Positions 16,427 through 61,266 of a stretch of 64,000 nucleotides of DNA are shown here, piece by piece. This stretch comes from Perkinsus olseni (lineage: Eukaryota > Perkinsozoa > Perkinsida > Perkinsidae), in contig JABANP010000081.1 of NCBI GenBank assembly GCA_013115135.1, forward strand, positions 1 to 64,000, read 5' to 3'. Each line of letters starts with the position of its first letter. The first letter of the stretch is position 1. The position numbers and the translations under genes were made by a program. The notes under the pieces were generated by a model. The model saw nothing but the letters and a program-made list of their open reading frames with translations, searched no databases and was not told the DNA's origin.

Positions 16427-17089
16427 CTATGCCATTCAGAAGTCTATTTGGCGGATAAAGCCGCCTATATGGGGGCAGAGGATTTCACGTTGGCGGGTCG
16501 TTGAGACAGCAAATTGGGGGTAGGGTCGAGACGGGGGTATACAATTGGCGGATAAGGAAGTCATCTTAGCGGCAGGCCTCGAATGAGGAATTCAATTCCG
16601 CGAGTAAGGCTTACGATTTCATAGTAAAGGAAGTCAATTTCGCTGATAAGGACATCAATTTCGGGGGGTCAACTTGAGCCATTCCGAAATCTTCCCGCTG
16701 CTATTCTCAGATTGACACAACTGCGCGACAGTGCATGACAGTATCTCACGGAATCCTGTTGGATTTGGGGGCCGGCGACGGCTTCCCGATGATCCATGAG
16801 AGCAAAGAGAGCAAACTTTGCTCTCATTCATGATCATCATCATATTTGCTCAGCTAAGACGACTACTGGATGGATAGAAGCTTAATTGTACAATGGATAG
16901 TACAGATTGATTCCTGTCATACTGAGATACTGTCATGCACTGTCGCGCACTTGTGACTTTCTTCCGCCAATTGTATACCCCCGTCTCGACCCTACCCCCA
17001 ATTCGCTGTCTCAACGACCCGCCAACGTGAAATCCTCTGCCCCCATATAGGCGGCTTTATCCGCCAAATAGGCTTCTGAATGGTATAGA
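16427..17089. mobile_element. Fold-back element with nested inverted repeats
   Basis: Outer arms 16427-16546 and about 16967-17089 are reverse complements over about 118 bp with about three mismatches. Inner arms 16711-16748 and about 16920-16956 form a second inverted repeat (core GATACTGTCATGCACTGTC). The spacer at about 16750-16920 contains GAGAGCAAA/TTTGCTCTC. Between the left arms (16546-16670) a degenerate repeat of about 30 nt (CAATTNCGCNGATAAGGAAGT-like) is visible. There is no transposase ORF. The outer arm is the unit that is amplified in the tandem array that follows. Confidence 0.8.
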
Positions 17090-18150
17090 TATCCTCTACC
17101 CCCATATAGGCGGCTTTATCCGCCAAATAGGCTTCTGAATGGTATAGATATCCTCTACCCCCATATAGGCGGCTTTATCCGCCAAATAGGCTTCTGAATG
17201 GTATAGATATCCTCTACCCCCATATAGGCGGCTTTATCCGCCAAATAGGCTTCTGAATGGTATAGATATCCTCTACCCCCATATAGGCGGCTTTATCCGC
17301 CAAATAGGCTTCTGAATGGTATAGATATCCTCTACCCCCATATAGGCGGCTTTATCCGCCAAATAGGCTTCTGAATGGTATAGATATCCTCTACCCCCAT
17401 ATAGGCGGCTTTATCCGCCAAATAGGCTTCTGAATGGTATAGATATCCTCTACCCCCATATAGGCGGCTTTATCCGCCAAATAGGCTTCTGAATGGTATA
17501 GATATCCTCTACCCCCATATAGGCGGCTTTATCCGCCAAATAGGCTTCTGAATGGTATAGATATCCTCTACCCCCATATAGGCGGCTTTATCCGCCAAAT
17601 AGGCTTCTGAATGGTATAGATATCCTCTACCCCCATATAGGCGGCTTTATCCGCCAAATAGGCTTCTGAATGGTATAGATATCCTCTACCCCCATATAGG
17701 CGGCTTTATCCGCCAAATAGGCTTCTGAATGGTATAGATATCCTCTACCCCCATATAGGCGGCTTTATCCGCCAAATAGGCTTCTGAATGGTATAGATAT
17801 CCTCTACCCCCATATAGGCGGCTTTGTCCGCCAAATAGGCTTCTGAATGGTATAGATATCCTCTACCCCCATATAGGCGGCTTTATCCGCCAAATAGGCT
17901 TCTGAATGGTATAGATATCCTCTACCCCCATATAGGCGGCTTTATCCGCCAAATAGGCTCTGAATGGTATAGATATCCTCTACCCCCATATAGGCGGCTT
18001 TATCCGCCAAATAGGCTTCTGAATGGTATAGATATCCTCTACCCCCATATAGGCGGCTTTATCCGCCAAATAGGCTTCTGAATGGTATAGATATCCTCTA
18101 CCCCCATATAGGCGGCTTTATCCGCCAAATAGGCTTCTGAATGGTATAGT
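17035..18150. repeat. 59-bp tandem array, about 19 near-identical copies
   Basis: The unit contains CCCCCATATAGGCGGCTTTA, then TCCGCCAAATAGGC and CTGAATGGTATAGATATCC. The first GGCGGC is at 17050 and the last at 18111, spaced 59 bp, giving 19 copies. I see one substitution (TTTGTCC near 17825) and one single-base deletion near 17959, so the array is young or homogenised. Each unit holds a small GGCGG/CCGCC stem. The unit is the terminal part of the right arm of the neighbouring fold-back element, which has a single inverted copy at 16430. This is not a CRISPR array: there are no unique spacers. Confidence 0.95.
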
Positions 18151-18873
18151 GAAAGCAACAGTCGTCGAGACTGAGCCGTCTTACTCATCACATTTGGCCT
18201 ACGCAACTCCCGAGCTGCTGATCAGGCAGCCGAATACCCTTCTGTCTGGTTCGTGGGTGTGTTAGCTAAGCTAACTTAGCTTCGCTCTTCGTACACAATA
18301 GTTGGTTTTGGGAGATCTAGTCAATAACGAACGCTTTGGTATTGATACGAGCGTCATTTGGAGAGACTATCATCAGAGGTGGGAAGACAGCAAGTTCTAC
18401 TCCACTTCAGCGACACACTTGTCCATGTAGCGCTCCTGGCCGCACGCATGCGCGTGGGTCTGCTATCAGCGGCGCCGGATAGACTAGGTCCACGCCCCGA
18501 GGAAGGAGTCAGTTGCTGTCGTCGGCATCACCGACGTTCCCGAGATCCCCGACTGGCGAACGTGGCATGGGTAAGATTGATGCCGGAAGCAATGAACAAA
18601 ACTAATGGGCTACTCTCGGGGAGTGACGTGACGTGGCTCACGTCACGAATAGACAGAACGGAGCGCTCGCTAAGTCGCGCAAGCGACAGTTGCCCCTAGC
18701 CGTCTTTTATACCCGTTCCGTATTCGCGGAAAGCTCGTGTTACCCAGCGGATGCGCGCGATTCACAAAGACTCTTTGTCAAAGAGCATCTCCGACCAGCA
18801 CTCCGTAGATATGATGTCATTGGAATCATCGATAAGGTTTCTTCGTGCTTCAGTTGGGCTACCCAGTGAGCTC

Positions 18874-20337
18874 ATGTTCATGCAATCAACATTATTATTA
18901 TCATTGGCGGTCCTTCTCCTCTCTGTGCATCTCTGCAACAGCGATGCGCCCACCCATACCCTGGTTAGAATCTCCCATCGAGGCAATCCGGTCGATATCC
19001 GTCATGTCCCACTCATGATGGCACAGGTAGCAGCCTTTGGTGAGCGGTCACGCCCTTCAAGTCAAGGCGATCACGAGACCGAGCAATGCTTGACGGAGGA
19101 TGGCGCGGTTGAGGACCTGACCCTGGCGGGAGTGCAGATCGTGCACTCTGATGAATGCTCGGCAAGTTACAAGCAAATTTCGGAGTACCTGAAGAAAGCT
19201 GAGGGAGAGTTGGGAATTGATTTTGATTGCGAGCCCGATTATTCCCTCACCTTTACGCCGATATGCGGTCCTACTACGACACGCCGTCCTCGGCCTCCGC
19301 CTACGACTACGACTACGACTACGACTCCTGCCCCGACGCCCCTCCCTTGTACTGGTGGTAATCCTTTGCTGGGTACCAACGACCCCGTGTCTTCCTGCCA
19401 GAGCAATCTCGAACGCATCAGGATAGGGGAGGCGTGGCGATTGATTGAATCATCCAAGCGCAAGCTGGAGAGAGTCGTTCTAGCGATCCTGGATACCGGA
19501 GTAAACATGAAGCATCCGGATCTGGTCGATCAATTCTGGAGGGACTCAACTACTGGTTCTATTGGGTTCAACTTCGTGGACAACAACACTGATGTTACTG
19601 ACAAGCATGGTCACGGTACTTTCTGCGCTGGGATAGCCGGCGCTGAGACCAATAACAGTATTGGTGTTGCGGGAGTGGCCAATGTGCAGCTGATGATACT
19701 GAAATGGGGAGACGGCGCTGGTGCTCGCATCAGCAACGCTCTGAGGGCCCTTGACTACGCACTCAGGATGGGGGCAACAGTATCGTCCCACTCTTACCGT
19801 TTTGATAACGGAAGTCGGGTCTTCGAGGCAGCAATCGCTAAAGCCGATGCTGTTGGGCACATCGTGGTTACTGGTGCTGGTAACGAAGCCAAAGACTTAG
19901 ACCAGAATCCTGTGTATCCCTGTTCGGTCGCACGAAACGTCCCCTCTATGCTATGTGTGGCGGGTAGTACTTCAACGTCCAAGCCCACCATCACCTCCTG
20001 GTCGAACGTCGGCGCGGCTACTCAGATTGCTGCCCCGGGCGTCGACATTTACTCGACGGACCGCTCAGGCTCCTACAGCTCAGCCTCGGGCACGTCAGCG
20101 TCCACCCCACAGGTTGCCGCCGTTGCAGCTATGATGGCTTCGCTGGGTCTACAAGGGCAAGACATTACCGATGCTATAACGAGGTCCCGCACTGCTGGCC
20201 TGAGCAACAAGTTCAACGTGCCTGACGTGGGAGAGCTGGATGCGCTGAACGCGGTCAAGATCGCCCTTGGGCGGCCCACCAGCCCCCCGACAACAACCTC
20301 AACTCCCGCAGAGACTTCAGGTGTTGTCTCGGTGTGA
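18874..20337 (+). CDS. Secreted subtilisin-like serine protease, copy 1
   Basis: S8 family endopeptidase, apparently single-exon, 487 aa from the ATG at 18874. That start gives a classic signal peptide (MFMQSTLLLSLAVLLLSVHL); an in-frame ATG at 18751 would bury it. A pro-region (about residues 27-150) is followed by a threonine/proline-rich linker encoded by ACT/ACG repeats near 19275-19345. The catalytic domain has Asp207 in ILDTGVNMKHPDL, His247 in HGHGTFCAGIAG, oxyanion Asn337 in GAGNE and Ser408 in GTSASTPQVAAVAA. All key residues are intact. It resembles the extracellular subtilisins described from Perkinsus; secretion and a role in external proteolysis are inferred. A tandem paralogue lies 2 kb downstream, and the 3' flanks of both copies are also homologous (shared TTTGATTAAGGTGGTTCTCG), so the duplication includes flanking DNA. 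Confidence 0.92.
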   Translation: MFMQSTLLLSLAVLLLSVHLCNSDAPTHTLVRISHRGNPVDIRHVPLMMAQVAAFGERSRPSSQGDHETEQCLTEDGAVEDLTLAGVQIVHSDECSASYKQISEYLKKAEGELGIDFDCEPDYSLTFTPICGPTTTRRPRPPPTTTTTTTTPAPTPLPCTGGNPLLGTNDPVSSCQSNLERIRIGEAWRLIESSKRKLERVVLAILDTGVNMKHPDLVDQFWRDSTTGSIGFNFVDNNTDVTDKHGHGTFCAGIAGAETNNSIGVAGVANVQLMILKWGDGAGARISNALRALDYALRMGATVSSHSYRFDNGSRVFEAAIAKADAVGHIVVTGAGNEAKDLDQNPVYPCSVARNVPSMLCVAGSTSTSKPTITSWSNVGAATQIAAPGVDIYSTDRSGSYSSASGTSASTPQVAAVAAMMASLGLQGQDITDAITRSRTAGLSNKFNVPDVGELDALNAVKIALGRPTSPPTTTSTPAETSGVVSV

Positions 20338-22326
20338 CGCAACTGACAGGTCGAGCTACATCTCCGCGCGTTGGCTCGCCAACGATGGAATATTGTCATC
20401 ACCAAACTTATGGTCAACTATTCTCCAACCTTTTTAGTAAAGATTTGATTAAGGTGGTTCTCGATTCTCCCCTATTCAAATGAGCCCCTCCTTGAAAGCT
20501 CAGTGCGAATGCGTTCAGTCCCAGAGAGCTAGCCCGTGACCCTCCGTCGGGGCACTTAGCGATACTACAGGCCTACTACCAACTCCCTTCCTGCGAGAGG
20601 GACTTCGTCTATGCGACTCATCGAGGCGAAAAATGAGATTCGAATGTCGTGCGGATCAACAGCTCAGTATGGTGAGAGCTTCAACGATTCAACTTCCGTT
20701 AAACTGCTACCCAGCAGACGCTACACTACCGGGGTAGCCACCGCCCTAGATTGCTTGTCACTCTTCGACCCATGGTACATCATCATTGCCTCGGTTACCT
20801 TGAGGTGGAGAATTTTGTCGCTCCTACGCGGAAGGCGAAGCCTAAGGCTTCGGCAAAAGGCTTTTGCGTAAAGCTTGTTTCTTCGCTTAGGTCCGCTGTC
20901 ATTTTACCTTGCCAAGCCGCTGGGAACTGATTCGCTACCCGCCGCTGAACAAGTGATGCTAGAAACGAAGGTTGTAACTGAATACATACTTCAACCATTA
21001 GTATTAAAATTTGTAGACCATTAACAGTACTAGTCATTATCACCATGAGTGTCATGGGCGTCAGCGCCCCATAATCCGTATAGTTCAAGTGACAGCCGGT
21101 TCACCGAAAGATCACAGAGAACTTATACAGTGTCACACTGGCACAGTGCTATATTTGGTAGTAGACCAGCATCGCTAGCGTTATCAATAATCTCAGCAGA
21201 GCTTATGCGCTGGCGAAACCACAGGACTTATATCCCAATCGAGCACAGGTGTTGGACTGAGAGCGCTAGTCACAAGAAATCACCCAAGACGAACCACTGC
21301 GTACATGATAACATAGAATGGCAACCATATCAACATCCAATTGCTGTAGAACTGACGCGCTGATGAAGCAACAATAAACATGACTCAAGTCTCAAGGAAA
21401 CCCGCTTTCCGTTGGGAGCGCTAGTCGAACAAAAGACTTCTTGGAAGATCTTCCACTCATCAGACAGGCATATATTCGCCGCCAAGTAATTACGGAGCTT
21501 CACGCCAACAAGTAATATATCCTGACCATCTCAAGCAGCAGCACTTGGCGCAGAAGAGCTTAACCTAAGCTCTTCTGCGCCAAGTACTTAGGAGTTGACC
21601 GGATTCTCCACCATGTAATTCAGATAACACGATACCCAGATAGAGGAGAAGTCCAGCTCAATCAATTGTCCGAAGTCAAACGCATCGTCCGCAGCTGACT
21701 GATGGATCACGTAAGCGTATCAGTAGACAATACAGTCTGTCCCACCAAGGATTTCCGCATCGGAAAATTTGCGCTAGAACGTTGCACAGGGCGAGTATAC
21801 AAATGAAACTTGGTGTTTCGGAGTAGTCACGATATTCCACATCTAATGGTGCCTCCTAGACCCCCCAACTTAACCGTCTAAGCTCACTACTGCCCTGCCA
21901 GTCCACAAACCCACTTTTCAAAACTCCGGTGGTTGGGAGTGTGACACTCCGAGTGTCAGCCTGAGACTCCCAACCATCCTCCTCTCCCGCTGATTGGTGA
22001 CGTGCCAGCACCTGCCCGACTCTGGTTGCACGCGTGCGCATAGCTCAGCTATCAGCAGCGACTAGCTTATTCGCTGAGTTCTCGTACACGCACAAGAGTC
22101 TGTGCCCCAGAACCGACGGACGGCAAGGGGCGCTGGATAGGCGAGGAAGGGGTCAGCTGTTCCTAGCAGTCTCTTATGCCCGTCCCACCTACACCAATAT
22201 TGCCCGATGGATCTGTGTGATCCACGCGACCATTTTAGACCTCCACTCCGTAGACATTTTGGCATCGGAATCACCGATGATGCGCGAAGCTCCGTCGTGC
22301 TTCAGTTGAGTCTCCCAACCAAAGTC
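20338..22326. other. Intergenic region between the tandem subtilases
   Basis: The first 550 bases are homologous to the DNA following copy 2 (about 23800-24360). A 20-bp perfect hairpin with a 3-nt loop lies at 21543-21585. ORFs here are short and unrecognised. The last part resembles the upstream flank of copy 1 only weakly. Confidence 0.6.
21543..21585. repeat. 20-bp perfect hairpin with 3-nt loop
   Basis: ACTTGGCGCAGAAGAGCTTA at 21543-21562 is followed after ACC by its exact reverse complement at 21566-21585. It is noncoding, between the two protease genes. Confidence 0.95.
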
Positions 22327-23779
22327 ATGTTCATGCGCTCCACATTATCCTCGTTGTCGGTCATCCTCCTCTCTATGGATCTCTGCAAAGGCGATGCGCC
22401 CACCCATACCCTGGTTAGAGTCTCCCACCGAGGGGCTCCGGTCGACATTCGTCACGTTCCGCTCATGATGGCACAGGCAGCAACCGCCGGTAAGCGCTCA
22501 CGCCCACTGAGTCGAGGTGATCAGGAGTGCGAGCAATGCTTGGCGCAGGACGGCACGGTTGAGCACCTGCCTCTGGTAGGCGTGCAGATCGTGCACTCTG
22601 ATGAATGCTCGGTGAGCCACGTCCAATTTTTGGAGTATTTGCAGAAAGCTGCGGTGGAGGTGGGCATTGATTTTGATTGCGAGCCTGATAATCCTCTCAC
22701 CTCTACGCCGGTATGGCGCCCTATCACGAAACGACGTCCGACTACCCCTCCGACTACGGCCACGACTAGGACGCCACGATATTGTACTGGTGGTAATCCT
22801 GTACTCGGCACCAACGACCCCAGTGTCTTCCTGCCAGAGCAATCTCGAACGCATTAGGATAGGGGAGGCGTGGCGATTGATTGAATCATCCAAGCGCAAG
22901 CTGAAGAAGGTCGTTTTGGCGATCCTGGATACCGGAGTGAACATGAAGCATCCGGATCTGGTTAATCAGTTCTGGAGGGACCCAACTACGGGTTCTATTG
23001 GCTTCAACTTCGCGGACAACAACACTGATGTTACCGACAAAGATGGTCACGGTACTTGGTGCGCTGGGATAGCCGGCGCTGAGACTAATAATAGTATTGG
23101 TGTTGCTGGAGTGGCCAACGTACAGCTGATGATACTGAAATGGGGAGACGGTGCTGGTGATCGCCTCAGCAACGCTCTGAAGGCTCTCGACTACGCACTC
23201 AGGATGGGGGCAACAGTGTCGTCTCACTCCTACCGTTCTGAAACAGGAAGTCGGATCTTCGAGGCAGCGATGGCTAAAGCCGCCACTACAGGGCACATCG
23301 CGGTTGTTGGTGCTGGCAACGAAGCCAAAAACTTAGATAAGAATCCTGTGTATCCTTGCTCAATTGCAAGAACCATTCCGTCCATGCTATGTGTGGCGGC
23401 CAGTCCTTCAAGCACAACTTCAAAGGCCGCCATCACCTCTTGGTCGAACGTCGGCGCTGCTACTCAGATTGCTGCTCCGGGCGTCGACATTTACTCAACG
23501 GACCGCTCAGGCTCCTACGGCTGGAGCTATGGCACGTCCGCGTCCACCCCACAAGTTGCCGCTGTTGCAGCTCTGATGGCTGCACTGGGTCTACAAGGGC
23601 AAGACATTACCGATGCTATAACGAGGTCCCGCACTGCTGGCCTGAGCAACAAGTTCAATGTGCCTGATGTGGGAGAGCTGGATGCGCTGAACGCGGTCAA
23701 GATCGCCCTTGGGCAGCCCACCAGCCCCCCGAGAGCCTCCACGACTCCCGCAGCAAGTCCAGGTGATGTCACGGCGTGA
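22327..23779 (+). CDS. Secreted subtilisin-like serine protease, copy 2 (frame break or micro-intron at 22822)
   Basis: Tandem paralogue of the 18874-20337 protease. It starts at 22327 with a signal peptide (MFMRSTLSSLSVILLS) and has the same pro-region and a shorter threonine-rich linker. The catalytic Asp (ILDTGVNMKHPDL), His (DGHGTWCAGIAG), Asn (GAGNE) and Ser (GTSASTPQVAA) are all present. Compared with copy 1 there is one extra A after GACCCC near 22822, which splits the ORF: the first frame ends at 22857 and the second carries the whole catalytic domain to 23779. The extra A also creates an AG. Together with a GT 31 nt upstream (in GGTGGTAATCC) it would form a phase-matched 31-nt intron restoring the frame and joining CTGG to VSSCQSNLERI. 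About 320 downstream codons are open and conserved, so the domain has not decayed. Functional gene, recent pseudogene and assembly error are all possible. Confidence 0.8.
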
Positions 23780-31860: not shown

Positions 31861-32299
31861 CGAGGCCCTCACGAGGAAATGCACTGTCACGCTACTGCAG
31901 CGAGTCCGCCCCGCTGAGAGCGGAGCGGCGCGATCAGTTCAGAGCCTCGAAGGACGAGAGGACCTTACCGAGGCCAGAGTCGGTCGTTCAACCTCGTGCG
32001 GCTCTGCCTGGGCTATACAGATGCATTTGATGCCCCCTCCTTTACATCGGTTTTTCAAGATAGAAGAGAGCCAGCCCGATCTGGTGCAAGGCACTGAGGA
32101 TGATCTAAATCTGTTTTCAAATTTTCAGATCAGTTTTCTGGCACTTGAGGAATAAATCAAATAAGCCACCTTGCTTTTCTAAAATTTCAAGCGTTTTTTA
32201 GCATTTTCCCTATTTTTCACAAGTTTGGGAAATGGGAAGAAAATTTTGACTGGGAAAATTGTCAACGGAAAAATTGTTGCCGTTTTGGAACGCCCTGCC

Positions 32300-32742
32300 T
32301 CAATGACTTGCGATCGAGGTGGCAGGACTTCATAAATCCTGACTTCAGAACCATCGTCGCTCACCGCGAGCCTCTGACCTGTCGATGGGCAGAGGGCGCT
32401 GTATGTGGCTGAGAGAAGATCGCCACTAAAGTCGTAGACCTTGGGTAGAGTCGGGGCTGTCCGCCGAAGACCCACGATGCTAACCCGACGCCACATTTGC
32501 CCTCTCCTTCGTCGAGACGGGGCTATGAGCTCAGATAGTCTGTTACCCGAAGCCGCAGAAAGTCGTTCAGACACCAACGGCAAGTGGAGCCTTTCCCTGC
32601 TCGAGCTTCCACGCCCCGATGTGGCCCGGACGACAGTACAGCACTCTCCTATGGAGACGTCCCAGGTTGAAATCTCCCCATTGGCATATCGCACCGCCAC
32701 CAGATCCGAACAGGACTTCGCTGAGCACCAGGCCATTGAAGC
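32300..32742 (-). pseudogene. Truncated duplicate of the aladin-like WD40 gene
   Basis: About 440 bp closely match 42750-43196 inside the WD40 gene, same orientation, with long identical runs (for example around CTCACCGCGAGCCTCTGACC). The encoded peptides are also shared (YDFSGDLLSATYSALCPSTG). The middle has indels that shift and then restore frame (a basic run RRRRGQMWRR replaces the parental sequence), and both ends stop abruptly in unrelated DNA. There is no start, no other blades and no splice context, so it is a non-functional fragment. Confidence 0.85.
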
Positions 32743-42315: not shown

Positions 42316-44192
42316 TTAGCCTCCGAGTGAGGGAGCTCGCAGGCTGTAGAAGCTCGAGCTCGAAGCAAGCCGCTGATCTGGTAGGCTCCACAGTGGCGAT
42401 GGCTCGTAGCCCGCATCGTAATCCTCCCCGCCAGGGACCTCAGGCCCCAATGGTGCGTTCGATGGCACTGATCGGGTTACGTCTGCGGACAGCGACCGAG
42501 ATGGCTTGAGCATGCGAGTCACTGCCGGGAAAGCCATTGGAACCACCTGTAGTAATTTCGTACTCTCCTGACCGGCCTCTTCAACCCATACAATAATCAA
42601 TCTCGTAGTAACACTGCAAGCAGCCGCCGAGAGATCACTGGACAGATCGCTCTCCCGTACAGGGGCGAAATCGAGAGCCGCCACTCTCAGGCCCTGCCTG
42701 GGCGCTGGGACAGTACCGAGTAGGTCCACATTGGAGGCCCCCTGCCCCTCAATGACTTGCGATAGAGGCGGAAGAACTTCATAAACCCTGACTTCAGAAC
42801 CACCGTCGCTCACCGCGAGCCTCTGACCTGTCGATGGGCAGAGGGCGCTGTATGTGGCTGACAGAAGGTCGCCACTAAAGTCGTAGACTTTGGGTAGTGT
42901 CGGAGTCTGTCCGCCAAAGACCCAGGATGCTGAGCCGACACCCCATTTGCCCTCGCCCTCATCGAGACGAGGCCATAAAAGCTCCGCCAGTCTATAACCC
43001 GAAGACACGTAGAGTCTTTCAGAATCCAGCGGCCAGTGGAGCCTCCCCGTGCTCGAGGTCACACGCCCCGATGTGGCCCGGACGACAGTACAGCACTCTC
43101 CTGTAGAGACGTCCCACGTTCGAATCTCCCCATTGGCATACCGCACCGCCAACAAATCCGAGCAGGACTTCGCTGAGCACCAGGCCACAGAAGTGACCTC
43201 AGCAGTCCTCAGGCGCCTCAGAACAAGTGGGGTCGCTGCTGACGTTCCCACTGTAGCCGACTCCCAAACCAGCACTACGTTCGAGTACGCCACTGCTAGC
43301 AGAGAGCCATCCCTCGGTGAGTACTCTATGACAGAGGGTGCGAGAGGTAGACTGCGATTTGCTGTAATCTGCCAATCTTCATGGACGCCGGAGAGGGAGG
43401 TCACGATGAAACCGGATACAGTACCGAGAGCTATTGTAAGGGGACAAGGCGACGGAGCGAAGGCCACACAGCTTCCTGAGAGGGGAGCTATTGACTTTGC
43501 CTTAGGGAATGAATGATGAGCGAATAGTAGCGTGCGATTCGCCCTTACCCGTGAGTCGAGGAGTCTTCCTCGGCAAGGCCAAGCTGAAGACTTTGTGCTG
43601 ACTCCTGTCGATCAGCGTAACTTCTCCTTTCGGGGAGACCACAACACTGTAGGGTGCAGACGGATGCGAACAGCAATGCCATTGAGGGCTCATGGCTTCC
43701 GGTGATATCTGCAGCACACTTTGCGATACCATAAAAGCACCAAATCTTACCCAGGGGAGCTCTCAAAAACCACGAAGTAACGGCGTAGTCGGCAGAGAGC
43801 TGATCCAGTGTGCTCCAGGGGGCCAGCACGTCATTGGCAAGGAACTGCAGGGGTCCCATAAGCGGCGCCAAGAGATTTTTCTCAACTACCTCTCCAACAG
43901 TTCCCCATTGTCGCAGTCTCTCCAACAGTCCAACGGCCCTTCCCTCAGCGGCGGTGTTAGTCGCAGCGAGCGTGGATGCGCTCAATGAGGGAAGTGCTCC
44001 ACCGTGCTCGTCCTCAGTGAGCGATGCTAGCCAAGCCTCAGCACTACAGCTACTTGCCTGACACTCACAGGAGAATGAGCGAGCACGCAGAGGGCCGAGG
44101 GAACAGTACCCCCACGGACTCCAAGTCGTGACGTATTCTTCCCTCACTCTCGTAACTGAGCTGGTCCTTCTGGCAACCTCCATTGCAATCAT
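42316..44192 (-). CDS. WD40-repeat protein, aladin (AAAS) nucleoporin-like
   Basis: Beta-propeller protein of three exons. The start is chosen at the ATG at 44192 (MIAMEVARRTSS). Exon 1 runs to WFLRAPL, where a GGTAAGA donor at about 43755 pairs with the AG in CCGGAAG so that the frame continues as AMSPQWHCCSHPSAPYSVVVSPKGEVTLID. The second intron (59 nt) starts GTAAGGGCG and ends GTCAATAG, giving LTAPLSGSCVAFAPSP. Blades include VIEYSPRDGSLLAVAYSNVV, VAWCSAKSCSDLLAVRYANG with EIRTWDVSTGEC, YSALCPSTGQRLAVSDGGS and VAALDFAPVRESDL. The SHPSAPYSVVVS segment and overall order recall aladin of the nuclear pore; the assignment is tentative and other WD40 families are possible. A truncated duplicate lies at 32300-32742. 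Confidence 0.65.
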
Positions 44193-59408: not shown

Positions 59409-61266
59409 ATGACTGCGTCCAATGAACCCGTGGTGAATACCGTGTCCGCTGGCGAGGCCGGCGCGGCCGAGAAGAACAAATTCGTGACAGTCACCAAGGG
59501 CGCCTACACCCGGATGGTCATCATCGGTATCGGCTATTTGTTCCCCATCTCTGGTGAGCCATCGAATCCTGTTTTCCCTGGTACAGGACGGCTTCTTCTC
59601 TTTCAGCTATCTGGGCCGCCTTCGACTACTGGAAGACTCTCTTTCCCGATAAGAACATCGAATTCGTGGTCACCTGTCTGTACCAGTTCGGCTCCGTGAT
59701 GACGGTTCTGATTCTCTCCCTGGGCAAGTCCATGAAGTTCCACCGCCGGATCCTTGGCGGCTTCAGCGGACAGTTCTGCTGCTTGTTCGTCATCTTCCTC
59801 TTCCGTTGGTTGGGCCTCCCCGTTAACGTGGTCTACGGCATCCTGCTCGGCCTGGTGTAAGTACCCTAGTCGCTTCGGGAAGTGGTTGTTGGAGTAGTGG
59901 ACTGGTGAGGGCGGTCGTTACAGGTTCTTGATGTCCGTCGTTACCGGTTTCTTGGACTCGGCTCTTCTAGCTCTCAACTCTCAATACTCGCCCAAGATGC
60001 AGGAGGCTCTCCAGATCGGCATCGGTACGTCCCTCTGTGTGCAGGTTCGCCATGTCGATCACTACTGGTTTCCTTGATTCCGCTTTATTCGCACTCAACT
60101 CGCAATATTCGCCTAAGATGCAAGAAGCGCTTCAGATCGGCATTGGTACGCCTTTACTGTGGCGCGGAGTGGGCCGTCACTCAGGAGTTTTCTTGACTCG
60201 GATCAGAGTGTTTGAGTTCTCTTGTCTCTTGCAGGCTTCTCCACCTTCGTATCCGTCGTCTACAGAGATATCACCAAGCTCATCTCGACGTCCCAGGCTA
60301 ACTCAACGTCCATCTACTTCTTGGCGGCCCTCGCAACAGTAAGCACAGCTGGGCAGCGACCGCGTTACGTTCCTCAATCCCGCTCCTCTGCAGGTGATCG
60401 TGTGCATCTCGGCTTACGTGTCCCTCATGAGGATGCCTATCTCGGCCCACATCCACGAGGAGGATGCCAGCTCCCGTCAGCAGCCTCTATTAGGTAGGCT
60501 CGTCGCGGTGCTGTCAATTTGCAAAGACGTATCCTTGGTTGATTCTCAGAGAAGAAAGAAGAAGAGGAAGTTAACATTTGGAAGGTTCTCCGCAGAGTGT
60601 GGTTCAACGAGCTCGTGATCTTCCTTAACTTCCTCTTGACTACCGCTTGCTACCCTGCTGTAAGTTGCCGGTTTTTATCGTCAGACGCCCTCGACTACTT
60701 TCGTTCATGATCAGATCCTTACGGCTATCCCTTGTTACACTTTAACGGTCCTGGCCCCTGCTCACTGGTACCAGACTATTCTGTTGTCCGTCTTCACAGT
60801 CTTCGACGTCATCGCTCGATTCTGTGTCCGTCATCGCGGCCCTCTCTATTACGGGAACATCTGGATCACTGCGGCTGTTCGTAAGTGTGCTGCTGTCCTT
60901 TGTCAGCCTGACGGTAGATGTGGTTCTTCTCAGGTATGTGTATCTTCCCCTGGTCGTATTGTGCGCTACGGGCACTTTCCGCAACGACTGGTTCTCCATG
61001 TTCATTGTCGCTCTCTTCGGCTTCGGTAACGGCTTCGCTGGCAGTCTCTCTTTGATCACTATCAACGAGATTCCCGGTCTTTCCGGCCCCGAGCTCAAGG
61101 CGACCGGTCGTTTCTCTGCTGTGGCGGTGAACTCTGGTGAGATGAGGGCTCCTCGAGCAGCTCACGGCGGGGATATGCTCTCGTCTCATTGTTCTTCTCC
61201 TCCTCAGGTCTCTGTGTCGGTGGTTTCGTAGCCATGGGTCTTGGCGTCTGGCTCGGATTGGCATAA
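59409..61266 (+). CDS. Equilibrative nucleoside transporter family protein with alternative exon pair
   Basis: Multi-pass membrane carrier of the SLC29/ENT family, predicted to import nucleosides or nucleobases; purine salvage is the usual role in parasitic protists. The start at 59409 (MTASNEPVVNTVSAGEAG) precedes the first membrane segment VIIGIGYLFPIS. Exon 2 (59607-59856) holds two or three helices. Then come two alternative copies of exon 3 (59924-60024 or 60045-60145), exon 4 (60235-60338), exon 5 (60394-60493), exon 6 (60550-60659; charged cytoplasmic loop EKKEEEEVN), exon 7 (60715-60880) and exon 8, which starts after GACGGTAG (37-nt intron) and continues VVLLRYVYLPLVVLCATG and FSMFIVALFGFGNG. 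The last exon ends at the TAA 61264-61266. ENT signatures include RFCVRHRGP-like and FGFGNGFAGSLS segments. All introns are GT-AG. Confidence 0.9.
59924..60024 (+). other. Transporter exon 3, alternative a
   Basis: 101-nt exon between an acceptor TTACAG and donor GTACGT, phase 2 in and phase 1 out. It encodes FLMSVVTGFLDSALLALNS and on to EALQIGI, a membrane helix of the transporter. It must replace exon 3b rather than accompany it, because 101 is not a multiple of three and joining both shifts the frame. Confidence 0.85.
60045..60145 (+). other. Transporter exon 3, alternative b
   Basis: Second 101-nt copy with acceptor GTGCAG and donor GTACGC. It encodes FAMSITTGFLDSALFALNS and on to EALQIGI, differing from 3a at a handful of residues in the helix while many differences are synonymous. 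Only 20 nt separate it from exon 3a. Confidence 0.85.

What the first reader, a model, noticed from the sequence alone, without database searches (positions are those of the whole stretch)
59924..60145. Mutually exclusive duplicate exons in a nucleoside transporter, enforced by a 20-nt intron
Seen in sequence: two 101-nt exons (59924-60024 and 60045-60145), both flanked by GT/AG signals, same phases, encoding near-identical transmembrane segments (LMSVVTGFLDSALLALNS versus AMSITTGFLDSALFALNS). The DNA between them is only 20 nt, shorter than every other intron I resolved here (about 36 nt and up), so splicing 3a to 3b should be sterically impossible. Including both would also shift the frame. 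Known: tandem exon duplication plus a too-short intervening intron is a classic route to mutually exclusive splicing in animals. A single-celled parasite using it to make two transporter isoforms differing in one helix would be unusual.
Basis: partly seen in the sequence, partly recalled or inferred. Interest (0 to 1): 0.9.

Follow-up and report, generated by a model that had tools for sequence, protein, structure and literature searches.

The report
Either-or exon pair in parasite transporter
A nucleoside-transporter gene of a single-celled shellfish parasite carries two old, carefully preserved versions of one exon, set so close together and in such a frame that a messenger RNA should be able to use only one at a time, a trick known mainly from animals.

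Summary
Confirmed at the stated coordinates. The window is Perkinsus olseni (99% protein identity); the gene (59409-61266, +) is an equilibrative nucleoside transporter. Exons 3a (59924-60024) and 3b (60045-60145) are 101 nt each, in the same phase, with GT/AG ends, 20 nt apart. They match at 76/101 bases but 31/35 residues; 17 of 25 differences are at third codon positions (dS 1.5-1.7, dN 0.11; 0 of 20,000 neutral simulations as conservative). So both copies have long been selected as coding exons. Including both, retaining the gap or skipping both gives an early stop. Surveyed P. marinus introns are at least 39 nt. New evidence: the annotated P. marinus protein runs past the 3a donor, and its 14-residue tail can, in the shifted frame, encode the start of 3b (FAMSITT) where expected. 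Of random open tails, 0 of 60,000 fit FAMSITT; 11 of 40,000 fit any equally long stretch near the start of 3b. The pair is therefore probably shared by two species (gap about 23 nt in P. marinus). The one other contig matched in the genome has a single copy. No RNA was available; all four annotated Perkinsus proteins covering this exon use 3a. Best reading: mutually exclusive exons. Mechanism known; setting new.

The parts
59409..59553 (+). exon 1 (coding part) of the equilibrative nucleoside transporter gene
   Evidence: gene model agreeing with P0001
59607..59856 (+). exon 2
59857..59923 (+). intron 2-3a, 67 nt; its acceptor scores -2.2 against 11.6-15.8 for the six constitutive introns that trained the matrix (3b acceptor 4.7, exon 4 acceptor 10.1)
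59924..60024 (+). exon 3a, 101 nt, VFLMSVVTGFLDSALLALNSQYSPKMQEALQIGIG; the copy in all 4 annotated Perkinsus proteins that cover it
60025..60044 (+). 20-nt gap: donor of 3a and acceptor of 3b; its only A residues are at positions 3 and 19
60045..60145 (+). exon 3b, 101 nt, VFAMSITTGFLDSALFALNSQYSPKMQEALQIGIG
60146..60234 (+). intron 3b-4, 89 nt
60235..60338 (+). exon 4
60394..60493 (+). exon 5
60550..60659 (+). exon 6
60715..60880 (+). exon 7
60934..61136 (+). exon 8; reading frame broken in this assembly, intact in database protein P0001
61208..61266 (+). exon 9 and stop

Best explanation
The Perkinsus olseni transporter gene makes two isoforms by mutually exclusive use of tandem duplicate exons 3a and 3b, which swap one transmembrane helix (by my alignment the equivalent of TM4 of PfENT1 and hENT1) at four positions. 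Shown: two homologous exons of equal length and phase, both under strong purifying selection as protein, with GT/AG splice ends. Shown by translation: including both, keeping the gap or skipping both breaks the frame. Inferred: 3a cannot be spliced to 3b, because the 20-nt gap is too short to hold a donor, a branch site and an acceptor. The branch site for 3b must then lie inside exon 3a or further upstream, or in 3a's own donor, so committing to one exon blocks the other. Products with neither or both exons would be lost through early stops. Inferred from an annotated protein: the arrangement is also present in P. marinus. Which cells or stages use 3b, and what it changes in transport, is unknown. 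The likeliest change is in substrate or inhibitor handling through the L/F swap one turn from the presumed substrate-contacting position. The confidence given is for the either-or use of the two exons; for the steric step I would say about 0.65.
For: Exact geometry. 76/101 nt but 31/35 aa identity; codon-position differences 6/2/17; dN/dS about 0.07; 0 of 20,000 neutral simulations as conservative. Both copies keep the 8 residues of the segment that are invariant in 48 aligned sequences, while 3b is unusual at 134 (A in 1 of 46 non-Perkinsus rows), 138 (T in 0 of 46) and 147 (F in 4 of 46). Open reading: both copies with the 20 nt removed, 234 residues; gap retained, 182; both skipped, 153; either exon alone, open through exon 7. 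P. marinus P0005 reads on after 3a; its tail is compatible in the +1 frame with FAMSITT, starting at codon 7 (counted from 0), and not with 3a's FLMSVVT; 0 of 60,000 random open tails fit FAMSITT, and 11 of 40,000 fit any stretch of 7 or more residues beginning within the first nine of 3b. P. marinus introns in a survey of 104 genes run 39-1622 nt (PMC3101222, passages). A donor-to-branch distance below 50 nt is the published steric criterion in human MXE clusters (PMC5740500, passages).
Against: No RNA evidence for 3b. 0 of 4 annotated Perkinsus proteins covering the segment use 3b; a search with a 101-residue 3b piece, which reaches only proteins of about 56-176 residues, had 9 candidates and none at E<=0.001. 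Ciliates splice introns as short as 15 nt (PMC12862383), so 20 nt is not unspliceable in every eukaryote. The P. marinus acceptor would need the GAG codon for the glutamate before 3b, which the protein cannot tell from GAA. The P. marinus model ends right after FAMSITT; a plain stop codon there would put a residue other than the expected glycine next, unless the model's end crosses a predicted splice junction. The 3a acceptor scores poorly against this gene's other acceptors. No paired RNA structure was found (z -0.22; 0 inverted repeats).
Confidence: 0.83

Rival explanations
1. Exon 3b is a silent relic: the gene uses 3a only, and 3b is a decaying copy.
For: All 4 annotated Perkinsus proteins that cover the segment carry 3a; no 3b protein was found by the one 3b-specific search, which covers proteins of about 56-176 residues only.
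Against: About 17 synonymous against 8 nonsynonymous differences, no stop, intact splice ends, dN/dS about 0.07, 0 of 20,000 neutral simulations as conservative; probable conservation of the 3b-specific residues in P. marinus.
Confidence: 0.07
2. The two exons are alternative, but exclusion is not steric: the 20-nt intron can be spliced (as in ciliates), and double-inclusion transcripts are made and then removed because of the frameshift, or a regulator chooses between the copies. (This shares the either-or claim with the best explanation, so the two odds overlap.)
For: Very short introns are spliced in Paramecium bursaria (minimum 15, median 24 nt; PMC12862383); in human MXE clusters frame incompatibility (60%) is far commoner than steric interference (9%) (PMC5740500); double inclusion stops early.
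Against: Surveyed P. marinus introns are 39 nt or more (PMC3101222), and those of this gene 53-89 nt. The gap has no A where a branch point would be expected; its A residues lie at positions 3 and 19 only.
Confidence: 0.2
3. Assembly artefact: the two copies are haplotypes or a misjoin.
For: Draft assembly of 968 contigs; the same gene has a frame break in exon 8.
Against: The copies differ at 25 of 101 bases with near-saturated synonymous sites, far beyond allelic difference. The wider flanks do not repeat. An independent P. marinus gene model shows the same order.
Confidence: 0.02

Closest known systems
Mutually exclusive exons from tandem exon duplication with steric interference (animals; human landscape PMC5740500)
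   Same: Adjacent homologous exons of equal phase; donor and branch site or acceptor of neighbours too close; double inclusion breaks the frame
   Different: Here in a perkinsozoan protist; the gap is 20 nt (about 23 in P. marinus, inferred), so the branch site of the second exon must overlap the first exon, its donor or sequence further upstream; not shown at RNA level
Mutually exclusive splicing guided by competing RNA structures (Dscam-type, a recalled label; PMC6071210, seen in the search listings only)
   Same: One of several duplicate exons chosen
   Different: No paired elements or unusual folding found here; only two copies
Equilibrative nucleoside transporters (SLC29; PfENT1, hENT1)
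   Same: PF01733; D..R pair at 301/305 with the spacing of PfENT1 D287/R291; exon 3 encodes the helix that I align with TM4
   Different: A perkinsid/dinoflagellate subfamily with an invariant D143 where I place PfENT1 Q135; no PDB match by sequence at E<=1
Other P. olseni PF01733 genes
   Same: Same Pfam family in the same genome
   Different: 24 matched rows on six other contigs, mostly long single open frames, several clustered: variety by gene copy, not by splicing; the window gene, matched exon by exon, is not among these rows

Membership tests
Mutually exclusive tandem duplicate exons | Adjacent homologous exons in one gene | tested here: met
   76/101 nt, 31/35 aa, similarity confined to the exons and a few bases beside them
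Mutually exclusive tandem duplicate exons | Equal phase and interchangeable splice ends | tested here: met
   Both 101 nt; either one joins exon 2 to exon 4 in frame
Mutually exclusive tandem duplicate exons | Both copies under coding constraint | tested here: met
   dN/dS about 0.07; simulation 0 of 20,000
Mutually exclusive tandem duplicate exons | Exactly one copy in each mature transcript | not testable with these tools
   No RNA reads held; only annotated proteins, 4 of 4 with 3a
Steric-interference subtype | Donor-to-branch-site distance too small for splicing between the copies | tested here: inconclusive
   Whole gap is 20 nt against a 39-nt minimum in the published P. marinus survey, but the splicing limit of this organism was not measured
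RNA-structure-guided subtype | Docking and selector pairings | tested here: not met
   0 inverted repeats of 8 nt or more, fold z -0.22; a single sequence, so covariation could not be tested
Equilibrative nucleoside transporter (PF01733) | Match to the Pfam model | tested here: inconclusive
   P0001 carries a precomputed PF01733.25, but the 326-aa part from the window scored 28.8 bits, just under the 29.8 cut-off, the 81-aa rest gave no family, and the gene is not among the 24 rows of the genome search with the model
Equilibrative nucleoside transporter (PF01733) | Substrate-contacting Asp and Arg four residues apart | tested here: met
   D301 and R305 nearly invariant (90% or more) in 48 sequences, compared by eye with PfENT1 D287/R291 (PMC10050424, PMC10729961)
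Equilibrative nucleoside transporter (PF01733) | Transports nucleosides | not tested
   no transport data

The most novel reading that the evidence does not exclude
A conserved splicing switch older than the P. marinus-P. olseni split, in which two exons are packed so tightly that the branch site of the second lies within the first or in its donor. The spliceosome's choice is then all-or-none without any dedicated regulator, and it toggles a nucleoside transporter between two versions of its substrate-contacting helix, perhaps between host and free-living stages.
Probability: 0.4. Interest if true: 0.8.

Novelty: new member of a known kind. Interest (0 to 1): 0.62.

Why it matters
Mutually exclusive tandem exons are well documented in animals. 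None for Perkinsus showed in the listings of the searches here, nor in the first 15-25 papers listed by the protist and alveolate searches. If RNA confirms it, this is a compact natural minimal case (two exons, 20-23 nt apart, no RNA structure evident) for asking how close two exons can sit before exclusion becomes automatic. It also shows a protist varying one helix of a nucleoside transporter without copying the gene, in a genome that otherwise varies this family by gene duplication. By my alignment, the equivalent helix in the malaria transporter carries the substrate-contacting Gln135 and the inhibitor-contacting Phe139 (PMC10050424, passages).

Tried and rejected
RNA-structure guidance: no inverted repeats, ordinary folding energy. 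Rfam: no hits in the window at gathering thresholds. Solved structures by sequence or by profile: none at E<=1, so the mapping to TM4 of PfENT1 and hENT1 rests on my own by-eye alignment of the invariant D143 with Gln135, and on recall for hENT1 beyond the residues quoted in PMC10729961 (passages). A helical wheel puts residue 147 at 40 degrees from D143, and 134, 137 and 138 on the far side; it shows no clear conserved face (mean vector 0.11) and is weak evidence. Isoforms in dinoflagellates: the Effrenium pair P0009/P0027 and the Durusdinium pair P0008/P0031 are identical over this segment and differ elsewhere. Survey for further tandem exons: 22 sequences, 247,210 bases (window, L009 and 20 sampled stretches), ungapped, 24 codons, spacing 60-1200; low-complexity rows (entropy under 3.0) and overlapping ones were dropped inside the script, uncounted. 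Of the 87 rows printed, one is the transporter pair (3, 0, 14 changes by codon position), 79 lie in the 59-bp array at 17-18 kb, 5 lie in a 187-bp DNA repeat in L025 (one of them 3, 0, 5 on one strand; its fellows 0, 0, 0; 0, 0, 1; 1, 5, 1; 3, 1, 2), and L018 and L023 give one weak match each with changes over all three positions (7, 4, 10 and 6, 6, 8). The sample beyond the window is about 0.3% of the genome, so rarity is not established. A branch-site motif scan (YTNAY) was uninformative: 3 of the 8 introns have no motif. The splice-site scores use a matrix trained on six of the introns they are compared with. The first null test for the P. marinus tail drew from the whole window, the gene itself included, and 2 of 3,000 tails reached 7 or more residues. 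One search excluded the gene but also narrowed the target to FAMSITT (0 of 60,000). One search put the wider target back with the gene excluded: 11 of 40,000.

Full report
WHAT IS THERE. The window belongs to Perkinsus olseni: the conceptual protein (exons 1-7) matches a P. olseni database protein (P0001) at 99% over the whole query, P. chesapeaki (P0002) at 88%, and two P. marinus proteins that look like the two halves of one gene (P0005, P0074) at 94% and 88%. The databases call P0001, P0002 and P0003 'Epsin-1', which does not fit; P0001 carries PF01733, the nucleoside transporter family. My own scan of the 326-residue part gave 28.8 bits against a cut-off of 29.8, and the 81-residue rest gave nothing; the genome search with the Pfam model did not pick this gene up exon by exon. 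By Pfam it is thus a divergent member. The nearest relatives are dinoflagellate and unnamed metagenome proteins, 44-54% identical for most rows, some named equilibrative nucleoside transporter by their source. The gene runs 59409-61266 on the plus strand with nine coding positions, the third of which exists twice. Exon 8 has a frame break in this assembly that P0001 does not have; it may be a sequencing error or a real allele. I left it untouched, and it has no bearing on exon 3.

THE TWO COPIES. 3a and 3b are each 101 nt, begin and end in the same phase, and have GT donors and AG acceptors; 20 nt lie between them. They match at 76 of 101 bases. By codon position the differences are 6, 2 and 17. 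Nei-Gojobori counting gives dN 0.11 and dS 1.5-1.7. When the same base changes were dealt out at random over 3a, 12,775 of 20,000 trials hit a stop, the 7,225 open ones averaged 14 residue changes, and none had 4 or fewer, the observed number. Such a pattern needs long selection for protein on both copies. It also speaks against recent duplication, gene conversion, allelic misassembly and decay as main explanations. Similarity fades within a few bases of the exon ends.

FRAME LOGIC. With 3a or 3b alone the message is open through exon 7. With both exons and the gap removed it stops after 234 residues, with the gap retained after 182, with both skipped after 153. So only one-of-two transcripts are productive, whatever the spliceosome does.

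WHY THE GAP MATTERS. The gap holds the 3a donor and the 3b acceptor and little else; its A residues are at positions 3 and 19. P. marinus introns in a published survey of 104 genes, 68 of them compared with full-length cDNAs, run from 39 to 1622 nt, the majority under 100 (PMC3101222, passages read); those of this gene are 53-89 nt. A donor closer than 50 nt to the branch point is the criterion used for potential steric interference in human mutually exclusive exons, where it applies to 57 clusters (9%), against 60% with exon lengths that break the frame (PMC5740500, passages read). Here the branch site for 3b must fall in exon 3a or further upstream, or in 3a's own donor, so use of 3b and use of 3a should exclude each other physically. 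That is inference: in the ciliate Paramecium bursaria introns have a minimum of 15 and a median of 24 nt (PMC12862383, passages read).

A SECOND SPECIES. The P. marinus protein P0005 follows the other proteins up to the last codon of 3a, then continues with TSCRTVEIRNVDYN and ends, while a later part of the gene is annotated as a separate protein, P0074. The P. olseni sequence read on in the same way gives TSLCVQVRHVDHYWFP, because it runs through the gap and into 3b in the wrong frame. Asking which +1-frame peptides the P. marinus tail could encode, FAMSITT, the first seven whole residues of 3b, fits at codon 7 (counted from 0), and the 3a equivalent FLMSVVT fits nowhere. Of 60,000 random open 14-codon stretches from the window and 20 sampled stretches (the transporter gene excluded), none was compatible with FAMSITT. 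With a looser target, any stretch of 7 or more residues beginning within the first nine of 3b, 11 of 40,000 were; a first run with the gene not excluded gave 2 of 3,000. The implied gap is 23 nt if the glutamate codon is GAG. Three of the four residues that tell 3b from 3a lie in this stretch. The weak points: the protein ends exactly there, and the DNA itself could not be read with these tools. In the three species 3a is identical at protein level over all 35 residues (P0001, P0002, P0005).

ORIGIN. The only other contig matched by the genome search, C154, has this exon once, with the same ends, phase and length; the search scores only the best candidates, so further paralogues are not excluded. 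3a is nearer to 3b (31/35 aa) than either is to the paralogue's exon (28/35 and 25/35). The duplication therefore probably happened in this gene after the paralogues parted and before P. marinus and P. olseni did; loss from the paralogue is not excluded. The genome also holds other PF01733 genes (24 rows on six contigs), mostly long single open frames, 21 of the rows on C24, C36 and C90.

WHAT THE SWAP COULD DO. The segment holds eight residues invariant in the 48 aligned sequences (T139, L142, D143, S144, S151, Q162, G164, G166), all kept in both copies. The copies differ at 134 (L/A), 137 (V/I), 138 (V/T) and 147 (L/F). Among the 46 non-Perkinsus rows, A at 134 occurs once, I at 137 eight times, T at 138 never, and F at 147 four times, so 3b looks like the specialised version. 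In PfENT1, Gln135 on TM4 bonds to inosine; Phe139, four residues on, contacts the inhibitor GSK4 and a nanobody that blocks the transport pathway (PMC10050424, passages). If D143 is the counterpart of Gln135, then the L/F site 147 is the counterpart of Phe139. This alignment is mine; the structure server was busy at all twelve attempts, so it was not tested.

WHAT IS MISSING. No transcript was seen. All four annotated Perkinsus proteins covering the exon use 3a (P0001, P0002, P0003, P0005), and a search with a 3b piece, limited to proteins of about 56-176 residues, found none at E<=0.001. The protein set is clustered at 90%, so a 3b isoform could be hidden behind a 3a representative. No RNA-structure signal was found. 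Against a six-intron matrix from this gene, the 3a acceptor scores -2.2 and the 3b acceptor 4.7 (constitutive 11.6-15.8, exon 4 10.1), the donors 6.0 and 7.0 (constitutive 7.4-9.6, exon 2 5.2): both copies have weak sites, which could mean regulation or merely a biased matrix. In 247 kb of sequence no second such pair appeared, which is too little to call it unique.

LITERATURE. Searches for Perkinsus with mutually exclusive exons (11 papers, all listed), with alternative splicing and introns (15 of 34 listed), and with alternatively spliced isoforms (11, all listed), and broader ones for protists and alveolates (25 of 44, 15 of 961 and 15 of 1,187 listed), listed no report of such an exon pair. 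The library covers open-licence papers only, and for most of them I saw titles and abstract beginnings. Mutually exclusive events have been called from RNA-seq in Acanthamoeba (PMC12404691, passages) and were among the event types tested in Paramecium bursaria (PMC12862383, passages); in the passages I saw, neither deals with homologous tandem exons. The Kassiopeia database of such exomes held twelve flies, Arabidopsis, worm and human at publication (PMC3923563, passages). Alternative splicing of pcna and cyclin in P. marinus is in the title of a paper cited in PMC3101222 (reference seen; the paper itself not read).

VERDICT. The mechanism is a known kind in an unexpected lineage; RNA is the missing step.

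Noticed in passing
17032-18149: Tandem array of a 59-bp unit, about 19 copies at 99% match.
   Followed up: no
18751-20337 and 22207-23779: Neighbouring open frames that look like subtilisin-like serine proteases (recognised by eye, not scanned); the second copy is split between two overlapping frames.
   Followed up: no
32179-32736 and 42316-43467: Two minus-strand open frames sharing similar stretches (SAKSCSDL.AVRYANGEI, TLPKVYDFSGDLLSATYSALCPSTGQRLAVSD), apparently partial duplicates (by eye).
   Followed up: no
60934-61136: Frame break in exon 8 of the transporter in this assembly, while database protein P0001 of the same species is open there.
   Followed up: partly
G000 contigs C24, C36, C90: Clusters of other PF01733 nucleoside-transporter genes, mostly long single open frames (21 of the 24 rows).
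   Followed up: no
database entries P0001, P0002, P0003: Public Perkinsus nucleoside transporter proteins carry the name Epsin-1, which does not fit their family.
   Followed up: partly
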